Part shown: positions 1-7,170 of the stretch, piece after piece
How the letters are laid out: every line of letters begins with the position of its first letter
Position numbering within the stretch: position 1 is the stretch's first letter
IMG/VR virus record: IMGVR_UViG_3300042891_001630
Span: 1 to 21,145 of that record
Source of the DNA: a virus
DNA: 21,145 bases
Direction: 5' to 3' (one strand)
Notes under the pieces: generated by a model
What the model saw: only the letters and a program-made list of their open reading frames with translations
Databases searched by the model: none
Told to the model about the DNA's origin: nothing
Position numbers and translations under genes: made by a program

Positions 1-465
1 CAATCCATTGATTGCATACATTACGAAATTATTAGCATTTGATTTGCTGCTAATTTTGTAATGTCCTTTGATTGAAGATGTTGAATCGTCAATTGTAATT
101 AGAAAATTATAAACGTTTGTTCCATTATCATCTTGTGTGTTGATCCACAAAAGACTTGCAGAGGATGGTGTTCCGTTGTTAAGTTTTAATCGACCTTGTC
201 CTGGATTACTGATTGCAGTATTTGAATCAAAGGTATAATCAAATGCAGCACCACCAAAGTTACCTTGTGCACCAGTTGGACCCTGTGGTCCTTGAGGACC
301 CTGTGGTCCTTGCGGACCAACGACACCTTGCGGTCCTTGTGGACCGATAACGCCTTGAGGACCTTGTGGACCCTGTGGACCTTGTGGACCCTGTGGTCCT
401 TGAGGACCACGAGTGATCTGTGAGACAAGAACAGAACTGCTTTGCTGTTTAACTGTAACAGTCAT
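1..465 (-). CDS. Collagen-like structural/adhesin protein, C-terminus cut by window edge
   Basis: Reading the minus strand from the ATG at 465 gives 155 codons open to the left edge, so the C-terminus is missing. The protein starts [20 protein letters not shown] and passes at once into Gly-Pro-Gln triplets (about residues 20-63, interrupted by GVIG and GVVG). A glycine-rich hinge (NFGGAAFDY) and a beta-type region with many Asn, Ser and Thr (residues 70-155) follow. Collagen-like triplets form trimeric rods in phage fibres. A short N-terminal anchor, triplet stalk and distal globular head is the usual plan of small virion adhesins in marine T4-like phages. The ATG overlaps the stop of the upstream 111-residue gene (TAATG), which implies translational coupling and fixes this start. 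Its exact place on the virion cannot be told. A frame-shifted reading of the triplet region gives a Val/His/Lys-rich ORF (186-428) that is not a gene. Confidence 0.8.
362..396. repeat. 35-bp perfect direct repeat, copy 1 (collagen-like coding DNA)
   Basis: This 35-base stretch inside the Gly-Pro-Gln triplets of the left-edge gene is identical to 2744-2778 in the tail-fibre gene, in the same orientation. It consists of alternating CCTTGTGGA and CCCTGTGGA units on the + strand. It joins two different genes about 2.4 kb apart. Confidence 0.9.
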
Positions 466-800
466 TATTTCGTAACCTGTGGATAGACTGTTATAATTCC
501 TTCAACCAAACGACTGACATTGTTTGAAGTCGTTGTTTCTTTAATGTCGTAGAGATATCTTCCTGGGCGAATATTTGCAGTCACTGCTGAGTTTGCATTT
601 GCGTAGATGACACCATTCGCTGCATCTGCAGCAGTGATGATTAAATTTGCAGTTGGAGAAGAAGAATAATATGATTTACGAATTGAACAAGTGAATGTAG
701 AATTTGCGACGTTTCTTGGTGAACCATCATCTTTTATTACTGTAATATCTACACCAAAGGAAGTCCCTTGGTCCATTGATAATTCTACATACTGAGCCAT
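465..800 (-). CDS. Small beta-rich virion protein (111 aa), function unknown
   Basis: A complete 111-residue protein with no signal peptide or membrane segment. It starts [19 protein letters not shown] and has alternating hydrophobic residues through a predicted beta sandwich. Two marks stand out: IRKSYYSSS (about residues 40-48) and RPGRYLYDI near residue 78. I recognise this pattern (MAQY..L..DQG, S.IRKSYY, PGRY.YD) from small proteins beside collagen-like fibre genes in marine T4-like phages. Their role is not established to my knowledge. An Ig-like or adaptor domain is a reasonable guess. The start has an AGGA ribosome site about 8 bases upstream in a 49-base gap that also holds a late-promoter-like motif. 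The stop overlaps the start of the next gene (TAATG), so the pair is probably made together and may form one adhesin unit. Confidence 0.75.
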
Positions 801-849: not shown

Positions 850-1965
850 TTAGTATACCAAAACTCCATTCGCATAGAAATTAGGACTTGTTTTATGTTT
901 GTTGTTAAATGTGTAAACAGTTTCAGATAAGCCAAGTGGAACAATGTTTTGTAGTAATATTTCATTTCTGTCTTTATCAACTAACTTATCGCCAACAGCA
1001 ATAAATGTAACATCAGTTAGTGCTTTATAACCGTTCATGGTCATAGGTGGATTCATTGAACAGTATCCTTTACCAACAACATAGAATGGGTGATCTTGTG
1101 ATCCCTTGATATTTGTTCCATTTTCAAGATGAAATTCATACATCACGCGATTAACACGAGTGATGATTTCTGATACTTCATTCGTTTCATTTTGTTGAGT
1201 ATCTGGATTATATGATAGAATTAAATCACCAACCTGAATGCTTTCGATTGGTTTGGTTGATAGATCAGCCATTGTAATGAGAGTGTCGCCAGTAAAGCAA
1301 CAACCGCCACCACCACCAATTCCACCACTTTGTGTTGCACCAATAAGAACAGATACAGTTACAGTGTCAAGATCAGTGCCTGCTGAATTTTTAAGTCTTA
1401 GTGTTGTAGTAGCAGATTTTGAAAGATAACTACCAGTAGTTTGTACATACCACTGCCATGCTCTCGTAGTAGTCATTTGCAGAGAAGTTGCAACAGCTGA
1501 AGAGGTTCCCTCAACGCTGTCTCCAGAAGGTGTATCAAGATAAGCATATGCAGTTGAAGCACTTCCTGATGTCAACCAAGTGAATGGTGTATCGAAATCT
1601 CCTGTATTCACATTAGACTCTCGATAAACACCATTGCCATTTGCATACAAAATAATCTGCGCTGATGCCCAAGATAATCCCAGACCACTTGGACTTCCTG
1701 ATGCGAACAAATTAACATCATATCCGAAACCAGCATTGTATTGAGGTAAATTAACTACAGGCGATACCACAGCAGCTGCACCAGAAAAATTAGAGAAACT
1801 GATTGTTCCACTTGTAGGAATTGTGACAGATGTTGCGTTTGCTGTTCCACCAGCAACATATGCACCACCAGAATAATACTCACTGATTGAAATTGGATTT
1901 GATCCTCCAAACTCAGTTTGAATATTACCTAGAGAAATCGAACTTGGTATGGTTGGAACAGCCAT
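850..1965 (-). CDS. Virion-type protein with C-terminal Hint (hedgehog/intein-like) domain
   Basis: 371 residues in four parts. Residues 1-65 (SISLGNIQTEFGGSNPIS, then IPTSGTISFSNFSGA) match the N-terminal modules common in marine T4-like fibre proteins. Residues 66-210 are beta-rich with no family I recognise. Residues 213-221 are a glycine hinge. Residues 222-371 form a Hint domain. Its signs are CCFTGDTLI (Cys222/Cys223, intein block A type), SIQVGDLILSYN, GSQDHPFYV (block B type, His292) and the C-terminal block NFYANGVLVY. The protein ends there, without the His-Asn and +1 nucleophile needed for full splicing. Expected chemistry is an N-S acyl shift at one of the Cys, giving cleavage or transfer of the N-terminal part to a nucleophile, as in hedgehog or bacterial intein-like proteins. 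The start is 3 bases after the tail-fibre stop, with AAGGGA upstream. The Hint call is firm; virion location and activity are inferred. Confidence 0.85.
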   Translation of the reverse strand: MAVPTIPSSISLGNIQTEFGGSNPISISEYYSGGAYVAGGTANATSVTIPTSGTISFSNFSGAAAVVSPVVNLPQYNAGFGYDVNLFASGSPSGLGLSWASAQIILYANGNGVYRESNVNTGDFDTPFTWLTSGSASTAYAYLDTPSGDSVEGTSSAVATSLQMTTTRAWQWYVQTTGSYLSKSATTTLRLKNSAGTDLDTVTVSVLIGATQSGGIGGGGGCCFTGDTLITMADLSTKPIESIQVGDLILSYNPDTQQNETNEVSEIITRVNRVMYEFHLENGTNIKGSQDHPFYVVGKGYCSMNPPMTMNGYKALTDVTFIAVGDKLVDKDRNEILLQNIVPLGLSETVYTFNNKHKTSPNFYANGVLVY

Positions 1966-1968
1966 TCA

Positions 1969-4143
1969 TCATCCCTTGTTGCGAACTTCGTTTAATAGAT
2001 CATTATATTTCTTATCAAGTTCTTTGATTGCTTCAACTAGCAACACACAAATCTTTTCGTAATGAATTGTTTTGTATTGCTCATCAATTGGAGCTGGAAC
2101 AACAATTTCAGGTAGCACACCTTCAACTTGTTGTGCAGAGAGACCAATTTCTCTCTTAACTGGGTATCCTAAACTTTGTGCAACTTCATTTGCTTCGTAG
2201 TAGAATCCATTTAATGAATTTACTTTCGCAAGAGCATTTTCAATATTACCGAGCACTGTCTTCAATCTTTCATCAGAGTAGTATGCAGTAATGTCGCCAG
2301 TGGCACGAATTGCACCGCCGCCAGGAGCACCTGTACCAACTCCAAGACTATTAAATTGTACATCACTATTTGTATTCAATGATTGGTTTGCGCCTGGACC
2401 CTGTGGACCCTGTGGACCAGTTGCACCATTGGTTCCATTGGTTCCATTCGTTCCTGCTGGACCCTGTGGACCCTGTGGACCAGTTGCACCATTGGTTCCA
2501 TTAGTTCCTCCTGGACCTTGTGGACCCTGTGGACCAGTTGCACCATTGGTTCCATTGGTTCCATTCGTTCCTGCTGGACCCTGTGGACCTTGAGGTCCAG
2601 TTCCACCTGGACCTTGTGGACCTTGTGGACCAGTGTTACCTATTGGACCCTGTGGACCCTGTGGACCAGTTCCTCCTGGACCCTGTGGACCTTGCGGACC
2701 AGTGACACCTTGTGGTCCCTGCGGTCCAGTTAATCCTGTTGGTCCTTGTGGACCCTGTGGACCTTGTGGACCCTGTGGACCTTGTGGTCCAGCAGCAACC
2801 ACAAATGCAACATTTGCGTTGCCATCAGCTGATGCAGTCACAGAAACAGTAACAGCTGATGTGTTGACAAAGTTCAATTGTCTTGCAGTTAATGTTGATC
2901 CACTATTTGCAGAAACTCTAACTGTGTTTGCAGCATTGTTTGCTGCGGCATAAGCATCATTGGCAGTTGTTCTTGCAGTATTTGCTTGAAGATATGCGTT
3001 ATTTGCTTGATCGTAACCAGCATTGGCTTGCCCATAAGCAGCATTCGCTTGTGCATAAGCATTCAATGCTGTGTCAAAACTGTAAAATACAGTTCCATTA
3101 TCACTCCAACCCCATTTGTCTGAAGTCTCATTCCATCTAAGGAATGTATCAGTACCAGATCCGCGCTCTACTTTAACATCAGCATTTAAAGAAGGAGCTC
3201 CTGTTTGATTGGAGTTCAGAATAATTTCGCTGTCTTCAACAACAAGGCTTGCAACATTAAATGTTGTTGAATCACCTTCAACGAAGAGATTACCTTGAAT
3301 CGTAACATCACCACTAAACGTACCACCAAGTGTGGTCACGCTGAGGTTTGCTCGAGCATATGCATTATTGGCTTGTGTATAAGCAGTATTTGCTTGGGCA
3401 TAAGCATCATTGGCAGTTGTTCTTGCAGTATTTGCTTGTGCGTATGCATTTAATCCATTTGCATTTACGTTTGTTATGTTTGTATTAACGGTACTGAATG
3501 TAGTATTCATTGTAGCGAATGTTGTATTCGCATCAGAACGTGCAGTATTTGCTTGACCATAAGCATCATTGGCTGTTGTGCGTGCTGTATTTGCTTGATT
3601 GAATGCAGCATTGGCTTGACCATATGCATCCAATGCACTCTGGAAATTATACATTGTGGTGCCATCATCTGACCAGCCCCACTTGTCTGTTGTTTCATTC
3701 CAACGCAAGAATGTATTAGTGCTCGAGCCGCGATCAATTGTAATAGAGGCACTTAATGTTGGTGCGGCAGTTGTATTTGAATTGAGGATAATTTCATTAT
3801 CTTCAATTGAAAGTGTTGCAACATTAAAAGAAGAAATATCACCTTCGATAAACACATTACCATTAACGGTCAAATCTTGATCAACGTAAATGGTATTAGC
3901 ATTAACTCTTGTTGCGGTTAGTAAATTAGAAACGAAAACGTTACCGTTTCCTGTACTACCAATCGTCAATAATGGAGGGGTATTAGATTGACCAGCTGCA
4001 CTCAATAATGTGAGTGCACCACCATCTTTCACATAGTTTGAATTGCGAAGAATATTACGATCCTCAATCAGATCGTTTGTACCTGCACGCCATTCATTGA
4101 ATGTGTTCACCAACTGAATATGTGTAATATTTGCGTTTGCCAT
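1969..4143 (-). CDS. Tail fibre: duplicated modules, collagen-like stalk, S74 self-cleaving chaperone
   Basis: 724 residues. After an N-terminal part (1-90) come two copies of a module, about residues 94-198 and 283-388. Each holds GN.F.EGD...FNVA.L..ED.EIILNSN, a [15 protein letters not shown] block and AYxQANxA heptads. Residues 405-450 are beta-rich. Residues 452-584 are Gly-X-Y triplets, mostly GPQ, with [15 protein letters not shown] runs. The C-terminus (about 590-724) is a Peptidase_S74 intramolecular chaperone: YSDERLK gives the Ser623/Lys628 dyad, then a final coiled coil ([16 protein letters not shown]). In this family the chaperone drives trimer folding and then cuts itself off before the Ser. 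The ATG overlaps the stop of the 73-residue gene (TAATG), with AGGGG upstream. It is probably the host-contacting fibre. No sequence similarity to T4 gp12 or gp37 is visible beyond the general plan. Confidence 0.9.
2392..2790. repeat. Collagen-like triplet coding repeat with 63/54/63-bp higher-order units
   Basis: This encodes residues 452-584 of the tail fibre as a 9-base periodic array (glycine-proline-glutamine codons). Within it, 2396-2458, 2459-2512 and 2513-2575 are three near-identical units of 63, 54 and 63 bases. Each encodes GPQGPQGP followed by GTNG-type triplets; the middle unit lacks one GTN triplet group. All unit lengths are multiples of 9, so copy-number change keeps the Gly-X-Y register. 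Confidence 0.85.
2744..2778. repeat. 35-bp perfect direct repeat, copy 2
   Basis: Identical over 35 bases to 362-396 in the left-edge collagen-like gene, in the same orientation. It lies at the N-terminal end of this fibre's triplet stalk. Confidence 0.9.
2947..2988. repeat. 42-bp perfect direct repeat, copy 1
   Basis: Identical over 42 bases to 3397-3438. It encodes [14 protein letters not shown] in the second heptad region of the tail fibre (residues about 386-399). The two copies are exactly 450 bases apart, which is 150 codons and keeps frame. Confidence 0.9.
3397..3438. repeat. 42-bp perfect direct repeat, copy 2
   Basis: Partner of 2947-2988, encoding [14 protein letters not shown] in the first heptad region (residues about 236-249). 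A further, diverged copy of the same coding pattern lies near 3541-3600. Confidence 0.9.
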
Positions 4144-4368: not shown

Positions 4369-7170
4369 TTATCCTGCTGGTGTTGCGATCGCTCTATAAT
4401 TTCTTACATGAGGAACGACAGTTGGACTTTCAGCTGTCATCACAATCTTGATAGCGTAGTATTTAAACTTGTCGCCAAGAGGATAAGTCACACCATTCTC
4501 AACATATGAAATCTTGTTTACGTCAAGGCTTGGGCGATATTCAAGTTCAATACCCTGATTCTGATCCTTTGAGAAGTTATCATTAACTTTACTCATTAGT
4601 TGCCATTTCTTATCATCGAATGGCTGAGAATCTTCGCCTGATTTGACCTTATAGTAAACATTAATATCTGTTCCAACTGGACGATTGCAGTCTAGATAAA
4701 CTCTCAGATCACCAGCATCGAATCCATCAGCAAGGGTGATTGGTTTTGTAACATATCTAGCGCGACAGTTACCACCAGAGGCACCATTTTCACCTGCGAT
4801 AATTGCTGTAGCATTTATTGCAATTCCAGGTTCAGCAAATGTAATCGTTGGAGTAGTGTAGTACCCAGAACCTGGTTCATCAACAACAACAATCGATACA
4901 TTTCCTGTATATCCAGTAACAGAAGATAGAGCTGCCACATAAGCATTTGCTGTTGTACCGCCTGATCTGTTTGGTGCAGAGAACGTTACTACGATATTTG
5001 CAGCGTTTGTGTGCTCTCCAAGATTTGTGAAGGTGATGTCAGAAACGGAAATACCTGCATCATTCACTAGGTATTCTGTTGCCACGCCACTCAATCTCTC
5101 AATATCGATAGATGGAGAAACATAAGGATCACTTGTTGATAAGTCTGCTTTTACGAGCAATGATTCATTATTACCCGCTACAATTCTTCTTCTACGAGTT
5201 GAAGATTTTGTTGATGTTCCAACATCTTCGCTGAAATCATAAAATCTATCTTTACGAATGCTTCTCCAATCAGTATCGAATGCGCTATCGATTGAAGTCG
5301 ATTTGAAAGAGTAGTTGATGTTTGTTGGCTTAAAGTTATAGTCAACTGAGTGAATCAAGAGCGAATCAACGTTGATGTTTGATAGAATATTATCTGTCAT
5401 AAACGTGATTGTATTTGATGTCGTTGTCCAGTTAGCATACTTCACGCGGAACATCAAATCTTCATTTGGAATTGGTGTCCAATTGGAGGCATTTTGAGCC
5501 TTAAAGAAATCACCAATGTATGGTTGCTCTGAGACTCTTCTTGCTGGAGTTGTACCAAGAATCTCACCACCGATTTCTGCAACGAATAGTGCATAGTCTG
5601 GTGAAGATGTCGTGACAGTAATTGCATATTCCTTTGATGGTTTAACAATTACTGGCGGAGAGAACTTGAATGTTGTGATTGAAGCATCAGAGGTAGCATC
5701 TGGAATTGTTGATGTTTTAATATCAGTTGCTTCCACAATGCTTTGACCTAGAATCTTTTGTGAAGGTAATCCATTTTCGATCTCATTAATTGTAACCTTA
5801 ACTGGCAACAATAGATCACCACTGGATGGTTTCTCAGCAAAAAACAAATCTACTGCTTTAATCTGTAGTGCACTTAATTCAGAAGCCACACCATCTGCGT
5901 GTGTATTCGCAGTTGCTGGTGTAAAGAAGGTTTGTGAAAGAGGGAAAAACTTCTTATTATTCTTCAAAATGTCGTTGTTGTTAAGTGCAACTTCTTTTGA
6001 AGGTGCGATTGTATCATATGCCAGCCTTGCATAATCAGCAACGCTAGATTGATTACCAACCACTGAGTAATAATTAAATGCTCTCATTGTATAATTATCA
6101 GAGTCGCTTGTTGCTCCATCTGTAATTGTTAGTAATCGTTTGCCGACAGGAAAACTTGCACCAGCTGCTTCGGGAATATGGAACAGACCAGCAAGTGTTC
6201 CATAATCATCAACGACGTGATCTCCATATGAATACTTAGAATTAGATGTCACGGAGACATTTGCACTCAGAGTAATCATAAATCCATTAGCGGAGACAGC
6301 ATTAATTGTACGCTCTGCAGTTAGACCCACTCCAGCTGCGATTCTAAAAGTGTTACCAACTGCATTAGAAACGTTACCAGAAACGTGAATGATATTTGTA
6401 TCATTACTTGAAGCATATGAAACAACACCAGAGTAGTGATTGTATGAGGAGACAGTTGCTGTCTTACCTGCATTATACTTACTATAGATCGTTGAACTTA
6501 TTGGGAATCCGTTGGCAACAGTTTGTGTTGATCCCACATTTAATCTTGTCGTAGAATTATCGCGCAAGAAAATTACAGAGTTTGGATTAAACTTTCTGAA
6601 TGCACCATCAATTGGACGAATTGCCATGTAAGCATGTGAAGTGCTTGTATTCTGGTATCTTTCAACAACACCAGCAAAAGTAATTTGTCCAGAAATATTA
6701 TTAGAGGATGTCTGATAAATTACGTCTTGTTCTATGACTGTTGTAGTAGATAATGTGTTAGCAGCATATGGAGCAACATTAACATTAATAAAATTTTCAT
6801 TTAGATAAATGATATTATTAGATGTTGTGATTACTTTTGCAAATGCATTAGTAGTCGCATTAATAATTGGCTCATCTTGAAAAAACTGACTTGCAGAGGT
6901 TGATAATGCAAGTTCATTCGCTTTTTGAGTGAATCCCTTTACATTAACTTTGTCGAAGAAAACATTTGCAGTTTTGTCTGGGCAAAGTCCTTTGGCAACA
7001 AAGGTGACTTCCTGCGCACGCATGAAACGAGTGTATTGCACTTTTCTTGTGCTATCATCTGTTAGTGAACTTTTTAAACTATCTACGAATCCAGGAGGAA
7101 AGTAAGTCAGAGAAGCCCCGCCGTCTTCCTCAAATGCTCTTCTAATAGATGGTTCATATGGAATTGGCAT
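4369..7170 (-). CDS. Large virion structural protein (933 aa), baseplate-associated
   Basis: The N-terminus is MPIPYEPSIRRAFEEDGG. Residues 50-80 (RAQEVTFVAKGLCPDKTANVFFD) form the Q.V.FVAKGL.P.T....FFD signature seen in DUF4815-type marine phage structural proteins. Residues 437-580 (VDLFFAEKPSSGDLLLPVKV...RRVSEQPYIGDFFKAQNAS) form a jelly-roll-like unit common in the same group. Residues 705-795 carry a GSGYYTTPTITF beta module shared with neighbouring baseplate genes. The end (805-930) has DLRVYLDCNRPVGTDINVYY and VPHVRNYRA, a conserved C-terminal block. A STRRRRRIVAGN stretch lies near 656-667. GAGG sits 9 bases before the ATG, in a 17-base gap after the 1298-residue gene. With that neighbour it probably decorates or extends the wedges, in the place T4 uses gp9-gp12, whose sequences I do not see here. 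The family match is from memory; the precise role is unknown. Confidence 0.75.
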   Translation of the reverse strand: MPIPYEPSIRRAFEEDGGASLTYFPPGFVDSLKSSLTDDSTRKVQYTRFMRAQEVTFVAKGLCPDKTANVFFDKVNVKGFTQKANELALSTSASQFFQDEPIINATTNAFAKVITTSNNIIYLNENFINVNVAPYAANTLSTTTVIEQDVIYQTSSNNISGQITFAGVVERYQNTSTSHAYMAIRPIDGAFRKFNPNSVIFLRDNSTTRLNVGSTQTVANGFPISSTIYSKYNAGKTATVSSYNHYSGVVSYASSNDTNIIHVSGNVSNAVGNTFRIAAGVGLTAERTINAVSANGFMITLSANVSVTSNSKYSYGDHVVDDYGTLAGLFHIPEAAGASFPVGKRLLTITDGATSDSDNYTMRAFNYYSVVGNQSSVADYARLAYDTIAPSKEVALNNNDILKNNKKFFPLSQTFFTPATANTHADGVASELSALQIKAVDLFFAEKPSSGDLLLPVKVTINEIENGLPSQKILGQSIVEATDIKTSTIPDATSDASITTFKFSPPVIVKPSKEYAITVTTSSPDYALFVAEIGGEILGTTPARRVSEQPYIGDFFKAQNASNWTPIPNEDLMFRVKYANWTTTSNTITFMTDNILSNINVDSLLIHSVDYNFKPTNINYSFKSTSIDSAFDTDWRSIRKDRFYDFSEDVGTSTKSSTRRRRIVAGNNESLLVKADLSTSDPYVSPSIDIERLSGVATEYLVNDAGISVSDITFTNLGEHTNAANIVVTFSAPNRSGGTTANAYVAALSSVTGYTGNVSIVVVDEPGSGYYTTPTITFAEPGIAINATAIIAGENGASGGNCRARYVTKPITLADGFDAGDLRVYLDCNRPVGTDINVYYKVKSGEDSQPFDDKKWQLMSKVNDNFSKDQNQGIELEYRPSLDVNKISYVENGVTYPLGDKFKYYAIKIVMTAESPTVVPHVRNYRAIATPAG

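What the first reader, a model, noticed from the sequence alone, without database searches (positions are those of the whole stretch)
850..1302. Hint (hedgehog/intein) domain at the end of a fibre-cassette protein
Residues 222-371 carry block A (CCFTGDTLI), block B (DHPFYV) and the C-terminal block (FYANGVLVY) of the Hint fold. The N-terminal part has fibre-type modules (SLGNIQTEFGGSNPIS and TSGTISFSNFSGA). A self-processing domain on a virion-type protein suggests it releases or covalently transfers its N-terminal part, for example to a neighbouring virion protein or a host surface group. I recall similar CCF...FYANGVLVY ends in marine phages, so the domain may be widespread but without a known job.
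Basis: partly seen in the sequence, partly recalled or inferred. Interest (0 to 1): 0.75.

Follow-up and report, generated by a model that had tools for sequence, protein, structure and literature searches.

The report
Intein-like end on phage fibre adhesin
A marine T4-like phage makes a tail-fibre-tip protein that ends in an intein/hedgehog-type self-cutting domain whose front-end chemistry is intact and whose back-end chemistry is gone, and in relatives this same domain is joined to very different front halves, which suggests that it processes or attaches whatever precedes it; no activity has yet been shown.

Summary
Observation confirmed. Residues 222-371 of the 371-aa ORF at 850-1965(-) form a complete Hint fold: AlphaFold pLDDT 92; best solved match Tetrahymena BIL2, TM 0.86. 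The nucleophile is Cys223, not Cys222: NCBIfam intein_Nterm starts there. In 22 different relatives Cys1, [S/T]xxH and the following Pro are invariant. None has the C-terminal His-Asn; the chain stops where it would be. These truncated Hints lie on one side of a single branch, away from phage and bacterial Hints ending in HN, and are under strong purifying selection (dN/dS about 0.02-0.12). The Hint is a constant module behind exchangeable N-termini: the closest relative has a 69% identical Hint and syntenic 41-86% identical neighbours but an unrelated N-terminus; others carry S8 subtilases or a tail protein. The window gene sits directly behind an S74-ended fibre gene, where T2/S16-type phages encode the gp38 adhesin. 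Best reading: a cleavage-only Hint that forms a thioester at Cys222-Cys223 and releases, or less likely transfers, the adhesin part. No activity was tested. Side finding: the AXH domains of ataxin-1 and HBP1 are sequence relatives of these phage Hints, and HBP1 keeps the Cys and His.

The parts
850..1965 (-). Hint-bearing fibre-slot protein, 371 aa (stop codon 850-852)
   Evidence: ORF and translation
1768..1965 (-). N-terminal module, aa 1-66, shared with Hint-less, mostly glycine-rich proteins located behind S74 fibre genes
   Evidence: 41-65% identity in 16 loci
1327..1767 (-). Middle part, aa 67-213, probably a beta-sandwich ('TWLTSGSAS' type) resembling the middle of L006, L044, L066; variable in the family
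   Evidence: structure prediction too weak to use (pLDDT 45)
1303..1326 (-). Gly-rich linker, aa 214-221 (GGIGGGGG), just before the point where the N-terminal part is exchanged in L048
853..1302 (-). Hint domain, aa 222-371
1297..1302 (-). Cys222 (-1) and Cys223 (nucleophile Cys1, block A): predicted scissile bond between them
   Evidence: intein_Nterm model starts at 223; Cys1 22/22
1090..1101 (-). Block B Ser289-x-x-His292 ([S/T]xxH)
   Evidence: 22/22 in core family
853..879 (-). C-terminal block FYANGVLV-Tyr371-stop; His-Asn of inteins/type A BILs absent, chain ends there
   Evidence: 0/22 core members have HN; intein_Cterm model matched L063 but not the window protein
1969..4143 (-). Upstream fibre gene: collagen-like repeats and C-terminal Peptidase_S74 intramolecular chaperone (724 aa)
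   Evidence: Pfam S74 3e-9, Collagen 1e-13
465..800 (-). Downstream 111-aa gene, phrog_1084 / phrog_3304 ('L-shaped tail fiber protein assembly'), conserved in order

Best explanation
The gene encodes an adhesin-like protein in the slot directly behind an S74-ended fibre. Its N-terminal module probably docks on the fibre or baseplate, its middle part is variable, and its C-terminal Hint is a cleavage-only autoprocessing domain. After folding, Cys223 attacks the Cys222-Cys223 peptide bond, helped by Ser289 and His292, and forms a thioester. Because there is no C-extein, no terminal Asn and no +1 nucleophile, the reaction cannot go on to splicing. The thioester is resolved by water or a small thiol, so the Hint is shed and the adhesin part is left ending in Cys222. 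Shown here: fold, intact N-side catalytic residues, loss of the C-side, constancy of the Hint against exchanged N-termini, synteny. Inferred: that cleavage occurs, its timing, how the thioester is resolved, and the adhesin role.
For: Hint fold with BIL2 as best match. The intein N-terminal splicing-region model is met from Cys223, the C-terminal model is not. Cys1, His, Pro 22/22, Ser/Thr 22/22, HN 0/22. dN/dS about 0.02-0.12 in seven informative pairs of the truncated family, so the domain is not decaying. Truncated Hints lie on one side of one branch. N-terminal exchange: L048 has a 69% Hint, syntenic neighbours 41-86% identical and an unrelated N-terminus; L220/L224 have Hint 99% vs N-terminus 58%, L208/L209 97% vs 61%. 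The same Hint is fused to subtilases (8e-24, 1e-22) and a tail protein (3e-29). Type B BILs, which lack block G, catalyse uncoupled cleavage (PMC4031507); hedgehog uses only the N-S acyl shift (PMC7664689).
Against: No activity data. The block F Asp of inteins is Thr in 19 of 22 here, and its partner role may be lost. A strongly conserved residue set can also serve a binding role. The invariable end (F/Y)(F/Y)ANG.LVY suggests that the end of the Hint itself is needed, which fits folding but also a docking function.
Confidence: 0.5

Rival explanations
1. Covalent coupling: the thioester at Cys223 is attacked by an amine or hydroxyl of a partner, so that the exchangeable N-terminal part is ligated to a constant virion protein (for example the S74 fibre or the 111-aa protein) or to a host-surface molecule, hedgehog- or BIL2-fashion.
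For: The nearest solved relative, BIL2, makes an isopeptide bond to a lysine (PMC8616854). Loss of the C-side leaves only reactions with an external nucleophile. A constant Hint on swapped N-termini is what a ligation module would look like.
Against: No acceptor site is identified; hydrolysis is the default for isolated Hint domains; no tail or sterol-recognition-like extension is present.
Confidence: 0.2
2. Structural domain: the Hint is no longer catalytic and serves as a C-terminal cap, folding nucleus or binding module of the fibre tip.
For: Block F Asp and the F-block His equivalent are not kept; AXH domains show that a relative of this Hint can become a binding module, in ataxin-1 without Cys and His.
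Against: Cys1, [S/T]xxH and Pro are invariant in 22 divergent members with unrelated N-termini; dN/dS is very low.
Confidence: 0.2
3. Redox-gated variant of the best explanation: Cys(-1) with Cys1, or with Cys(-4) of the CxxCC motif found in most members, forms a disulfide that blocks the acyl shift until reduced.
For: Cys(-1) precedes Cys1 in 21 of 22 core members and CxxC ends at Cys(-1) in 13, despite unrelated N-terminal parts. An engineered DnaE intein redox trap (3nzm) is among the structural matches.
Against: The window protein itself has only CC, with glycines before it; no redox measurement; the cysteines could bind metal instead.
Confidence: 0.1

Closest known systems
Bacterial intein-like (BIL) domains; ciliate BIL2 of the BUBL1 locus (6tmm/6y75) and C. 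thermocellum BIL (2lwy)
   Same: Complete fold (TM 0.86 and 0.79), block A Cys1, block B [S/T]xxH, NG-L-V end strand, no +1 nucleophile
   Different: Chain ends at Tyr371 where type A BILs have His-Asn and a C-flank; sits on phage fibre-slot proteins
Hedgehog autoprocessing (Hog) domain
   Same: Hint at the C-terminal end, only the N-side reaction possible
   Different: Weak sequence similarity (E about 0.2 by profile), no sterol-recognition region seen, unrelated N-terminal partners
Phage Hint domains ending in HN (L063, L008, L073, L101 and others) and bacterial PT-HINT
   Same: Same fold and blocks; profile-profile E 1.4e-41 between the phage groups
   Different: Keep His-Asn, mostly with a downstream segment; separate branches in the tree
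AXH domain (ataxin-1, HBP1)
   Same: Pfam AXH is the best Pfam hit of the window domain; shared 'HPFYV.GKG(W/Y).S..P...VGD' stretch
   Different: Eukaryotic binding domain, lacks the last third of the Hint; ataxin-1 lacks Cys1 and His
T2/S16-type gp38 adhesin
   Same: Gene directly follows the fibre gene; Hint-less relatives with the same N-module are mostly glycine-rich
   Different: No sequence relation to gp38 shown; carries a Hint

Membership tests
Hint superfamily | Hedgehog/intein fold | tested here: met
   pLDDT 91.8 model; TM 0.86 to BIL2, about 0.7-0.8 to inteins and hedgehog
Hint superfamily | N-side catalytic residues: Cys/Ser/Thr1 and block B [T/S]xxH | tested here: met
   Cys223, Ser289, His292; 22/22 in core family; intein_Nterm above cut-off
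Intein (splicing, class 1) | C-terminal His-Asn followed by Cys/Ser/Thr +1 and a C-extein | tested here: not met
   chain ends FYANGVLVY-stop; intein_Cterm not matched
BIL type A | C-terminal His-Asn | tested here: not met
   0/22 core members
BIL type B | no similarity to intein block G; cleavage uncoupled from splicing | tested here: inconclusive
   NG-L-V part of block G is kept, HN absent; cleavage not testable here (definition from PMC4031507)
Hedgehog Hog domain | sterol-recognition region after the Hint and cholesterol transfer | tested here: not met
   protein ends with the Hint domain; transfer activity not testable
AXH domain | Pfam PF08517 above gathering score | tested here: met
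   34.9 vs 33 bits for the isolated domain; 32.2 in the full protein. AXH-fold identity not tested
gp38-type fibre adhesin | encoded directly behind the distal fibre gene | tested here: met
   S74 fibre gene ends 3 bp before this gene starts; same neighbour in L048, L034, L055, L212
gp38-type fibre adhesin | binds the fibre tip and the receptor | not testable with these tools
   needs protein work

The most novel reading that the evidence does not exclude
The Hint is a universal coupling module of marine phage tail tips: it turns any N-terminal binding part into a thioester at the fibre end and links it covalently to a virion partner or to the host surface, giving irreversible adsorption or modular adhesin loading without a separate enzyme, possibly gated by the CxxCC redox motif.
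Probability: 0.12. Interest if true: 0.9.

Novelty: new variant of a known kind. Interest (0 to 1): 0.58.

Why it matters
Autoprocessing Hint domains are known from inteins, hedgehog and bacterial toxins. A conserved, C-terminally truncated group that is kept constant while adhesin, protease or tail parts are exchanged in front of it would give phage tail tips a self-processing step, beside the S74 chaperone, that can be tested directly. The same family makes the AXH domains of the disease protein ataxin-1 and the transcription factor HBP1 likely members of the Hint superfamily, with HBP1 keeping the catalytic Cys and His; whether that mammalian domain can form a thioester becomes a simple question to ask.

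Tried and rejected
Cultured phages: no close relative of the domain among 50,697 phage records (best full-length matches 27-32%, many of the weaker ones inteins in other genes). Bacterial genomes: one core member (L115), in a MAG contig, whose Hint equals that of viral contig L006 but for one residue, so probably viral DNA; the rest are mostly HN-bearing bacterial Hints. The slot in Pelagibacter phage HTVC008M holds an unrelated 78-aa protein. N-terminal structure prediction failed (pLDDT 45), so no fold search was done with it. A split or trans-spliced partner was considered: no C-extein ORF follows; the gap to the next gene is 49 bp. Decay of the domain was rejected by dN/dS. The AXH hit was at first suspected to be spurious; it was kept because all 17 members match and single-sequence and profile searches of the PDB agree. 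Literature searches for Hint domains on phage fibres and for AXH with intein/Hint gave nothing relevant in the open library.

Full report
Setting. The window is a whole 21,145-bp IMG/VR record. Its genes, all on the minus strand, are those of a T4-like baseplate and fibre operon: gp5-like hub lysozyme, gp25, two large proteins (691 and 1144 aa), gp8, a DUF4815 protein, a 933-aa structural protein, a 73-aa virion protein, an S74/collagen fibre, the Hint protein, a 111-aa protein and a collagen-like fibre. The nearest cultured phages by gp8 are Pelagibacter phages Mosig and HTVC008M and Synechococcus phages at about 30% identity. HTVC008M (Kyanoviridae) has the same order, but its slot between S74 fibre and 110-aa-class gene holds an unrelated 78-aa protein. 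The Hint protein is therefore an accessory occupant of a variable place.

The domain. Residues 222-371 are a complete Hint. Pfam, NCBIfam, PDB sequence profile and fold search agree. The intein_Nterm model begins at Cys223, so Cys223 is the nucleophile and Cys222 the residue before the scissile bond. The intein_Cterm model matched L063 but not the window protein.

The family. Pattern and profile scans of viral contigs gave 22 different sequences of a subfamily that ends at (F/Y)(F/Y)ANG.L.(Y/F)-stop or close variants of it. Cys1, Phe2, block B His and Pro are invariant, the residue three before the His is Ser or Thr in all, and none has the terminal His-Asn. In a tree built without the last 14 residues, the 24 truncated rows lie on one side of a single branch; support for that exact split is low, but a starred branch holds them together with one HN row. 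One member, L206, ends in Gly instead of Tyr. Pairwise dN/dS of the Hint is about 0.02-0.12 in seven informative pairs of this family, and an eighth pair had no amino-acid change, so the domain is maintained.

Constant Hint, exchanged front. L048/L202 is the closest relative: Hint 69% identical over all 150 residues, neighbours 41-86% identical in the same order, and no detectable similarity in the N-terminal 190 residues. Closer pairs show the same: L220/L224 Hint 99% identical with dS 0.18, N-terminal part 58% with dS 1.67; L208/L209 97% and 0.10 against 61% and 1.45. Elsewhere the same Hint follows S8 subtilases (L001, L059, L227, L228), a tail protein of phrog_2048 (L004), a glycine-rich domain (L034) and YNTGNP-type repeats (L203-L206).

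The slot. The first 66 residues belong to a module found in Hint-less, mostly glycine-rich proteins; in 13 of 16 such loci an S74 domain is encoded just upstream. In T2 and S16 the gene behind the distal fibre gene encodes the gp38 adhesin (PMC10175313; the S16 polyglycine domain is the title of a reference cited there). An adhesin role for the window protein is thus a positional inference.

Mechanism. Without C-extein, terminal Asn and +1 nucleophile, only the N-side half of the intein reaction is possible. Type B BILs cleave without splicing (PMC4031507) and hedgehog uses only the acyl shift (PMC7664689). I therefore favour thioester formation at Cys222-Cys223 followed by hydrolysis or thiolysis (0.5). 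Transfer to an acceptor is possible, because BIL2 makes isopeptide bonds (PMC8616854), but there is no acceptor evidence (0.2). An inert structural role is not excluded (0.2). Cys at -1 in 21 of 22 and CxxCC in 13 of 22 members suggest redox or metal control, untested.

AXH. The best Pfam hit of the window domain is AXH (2.5e-8, above the curated cut-off). All 17 members of A2 match AXH, and 13 of the 20 mostly HN-bearing phage Hints of A3 do so, best 6.5e-19. In the PDB, profile A3 reaches ataxin-1 AXH at 3.7e-10, ahead of hedgehog; phage Hint L067 alone reaches it at 6.4e-8. With L073 the top hit is HBP1, whose printed alignment shows CFLKGT and DHPFYVKNKGWSSFYP; ataxin-1 has FMKGS and EYPFF there. 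hhalign of A2 with the ataxin-1 segment gives 94% probability. AXH did not appear among the 50 fold matches shown for the window model, and solved AXH topologies were not compared, so the claim rests on sequence. No paper in the searched library joins AXH with inteins or Hint domains; most subscription papers are not held there.

Judgement.

Noticed in passing
window 853-1302 and loci L063, L067, L073: AXH domains of ataxin-1 and HBP1 are clear sequence relatives of these phage Hint domains; HBP1 keeps a block A Cys and block B His, ataxin-1 does not. No mention found in the searched library.
   Followed up: partly
L001:1234-3378, L059:2384-4426, L227 and L228 (domain at 6001-6426): Phage-encoded S8 subtilases ending in the same truncated Hint, with a Cys-rich stretch before it.
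   Followed up: partly
L067, L073, L076, L113, L237, L250: Single phage proteins with two or more Hint domains in tandem, some separated by short or HN-flanked segments.
   Followed up: no
L002:4429-6726 (also L034): Small genes that by eye look like sulfotransferases lie beside a Hint-bearing gene; the contig of L034 carries two different Hint-bearing proteins.
   Followed up: no
L203, L204, L205, L206 (upstream of the Hint): Long N-terminal parts made of degenerate 'YNTGNPASYTGN' repeats in front of the Hint; no Pfam match for L203 and L206, no PHROGs match for L203.
   Followed up: no
window 1-465 and 1969-4143: Collagen-like GPQGPQ repeats shared between two nearby fibre genes, a likely recombination substrate.
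   Followed up: no
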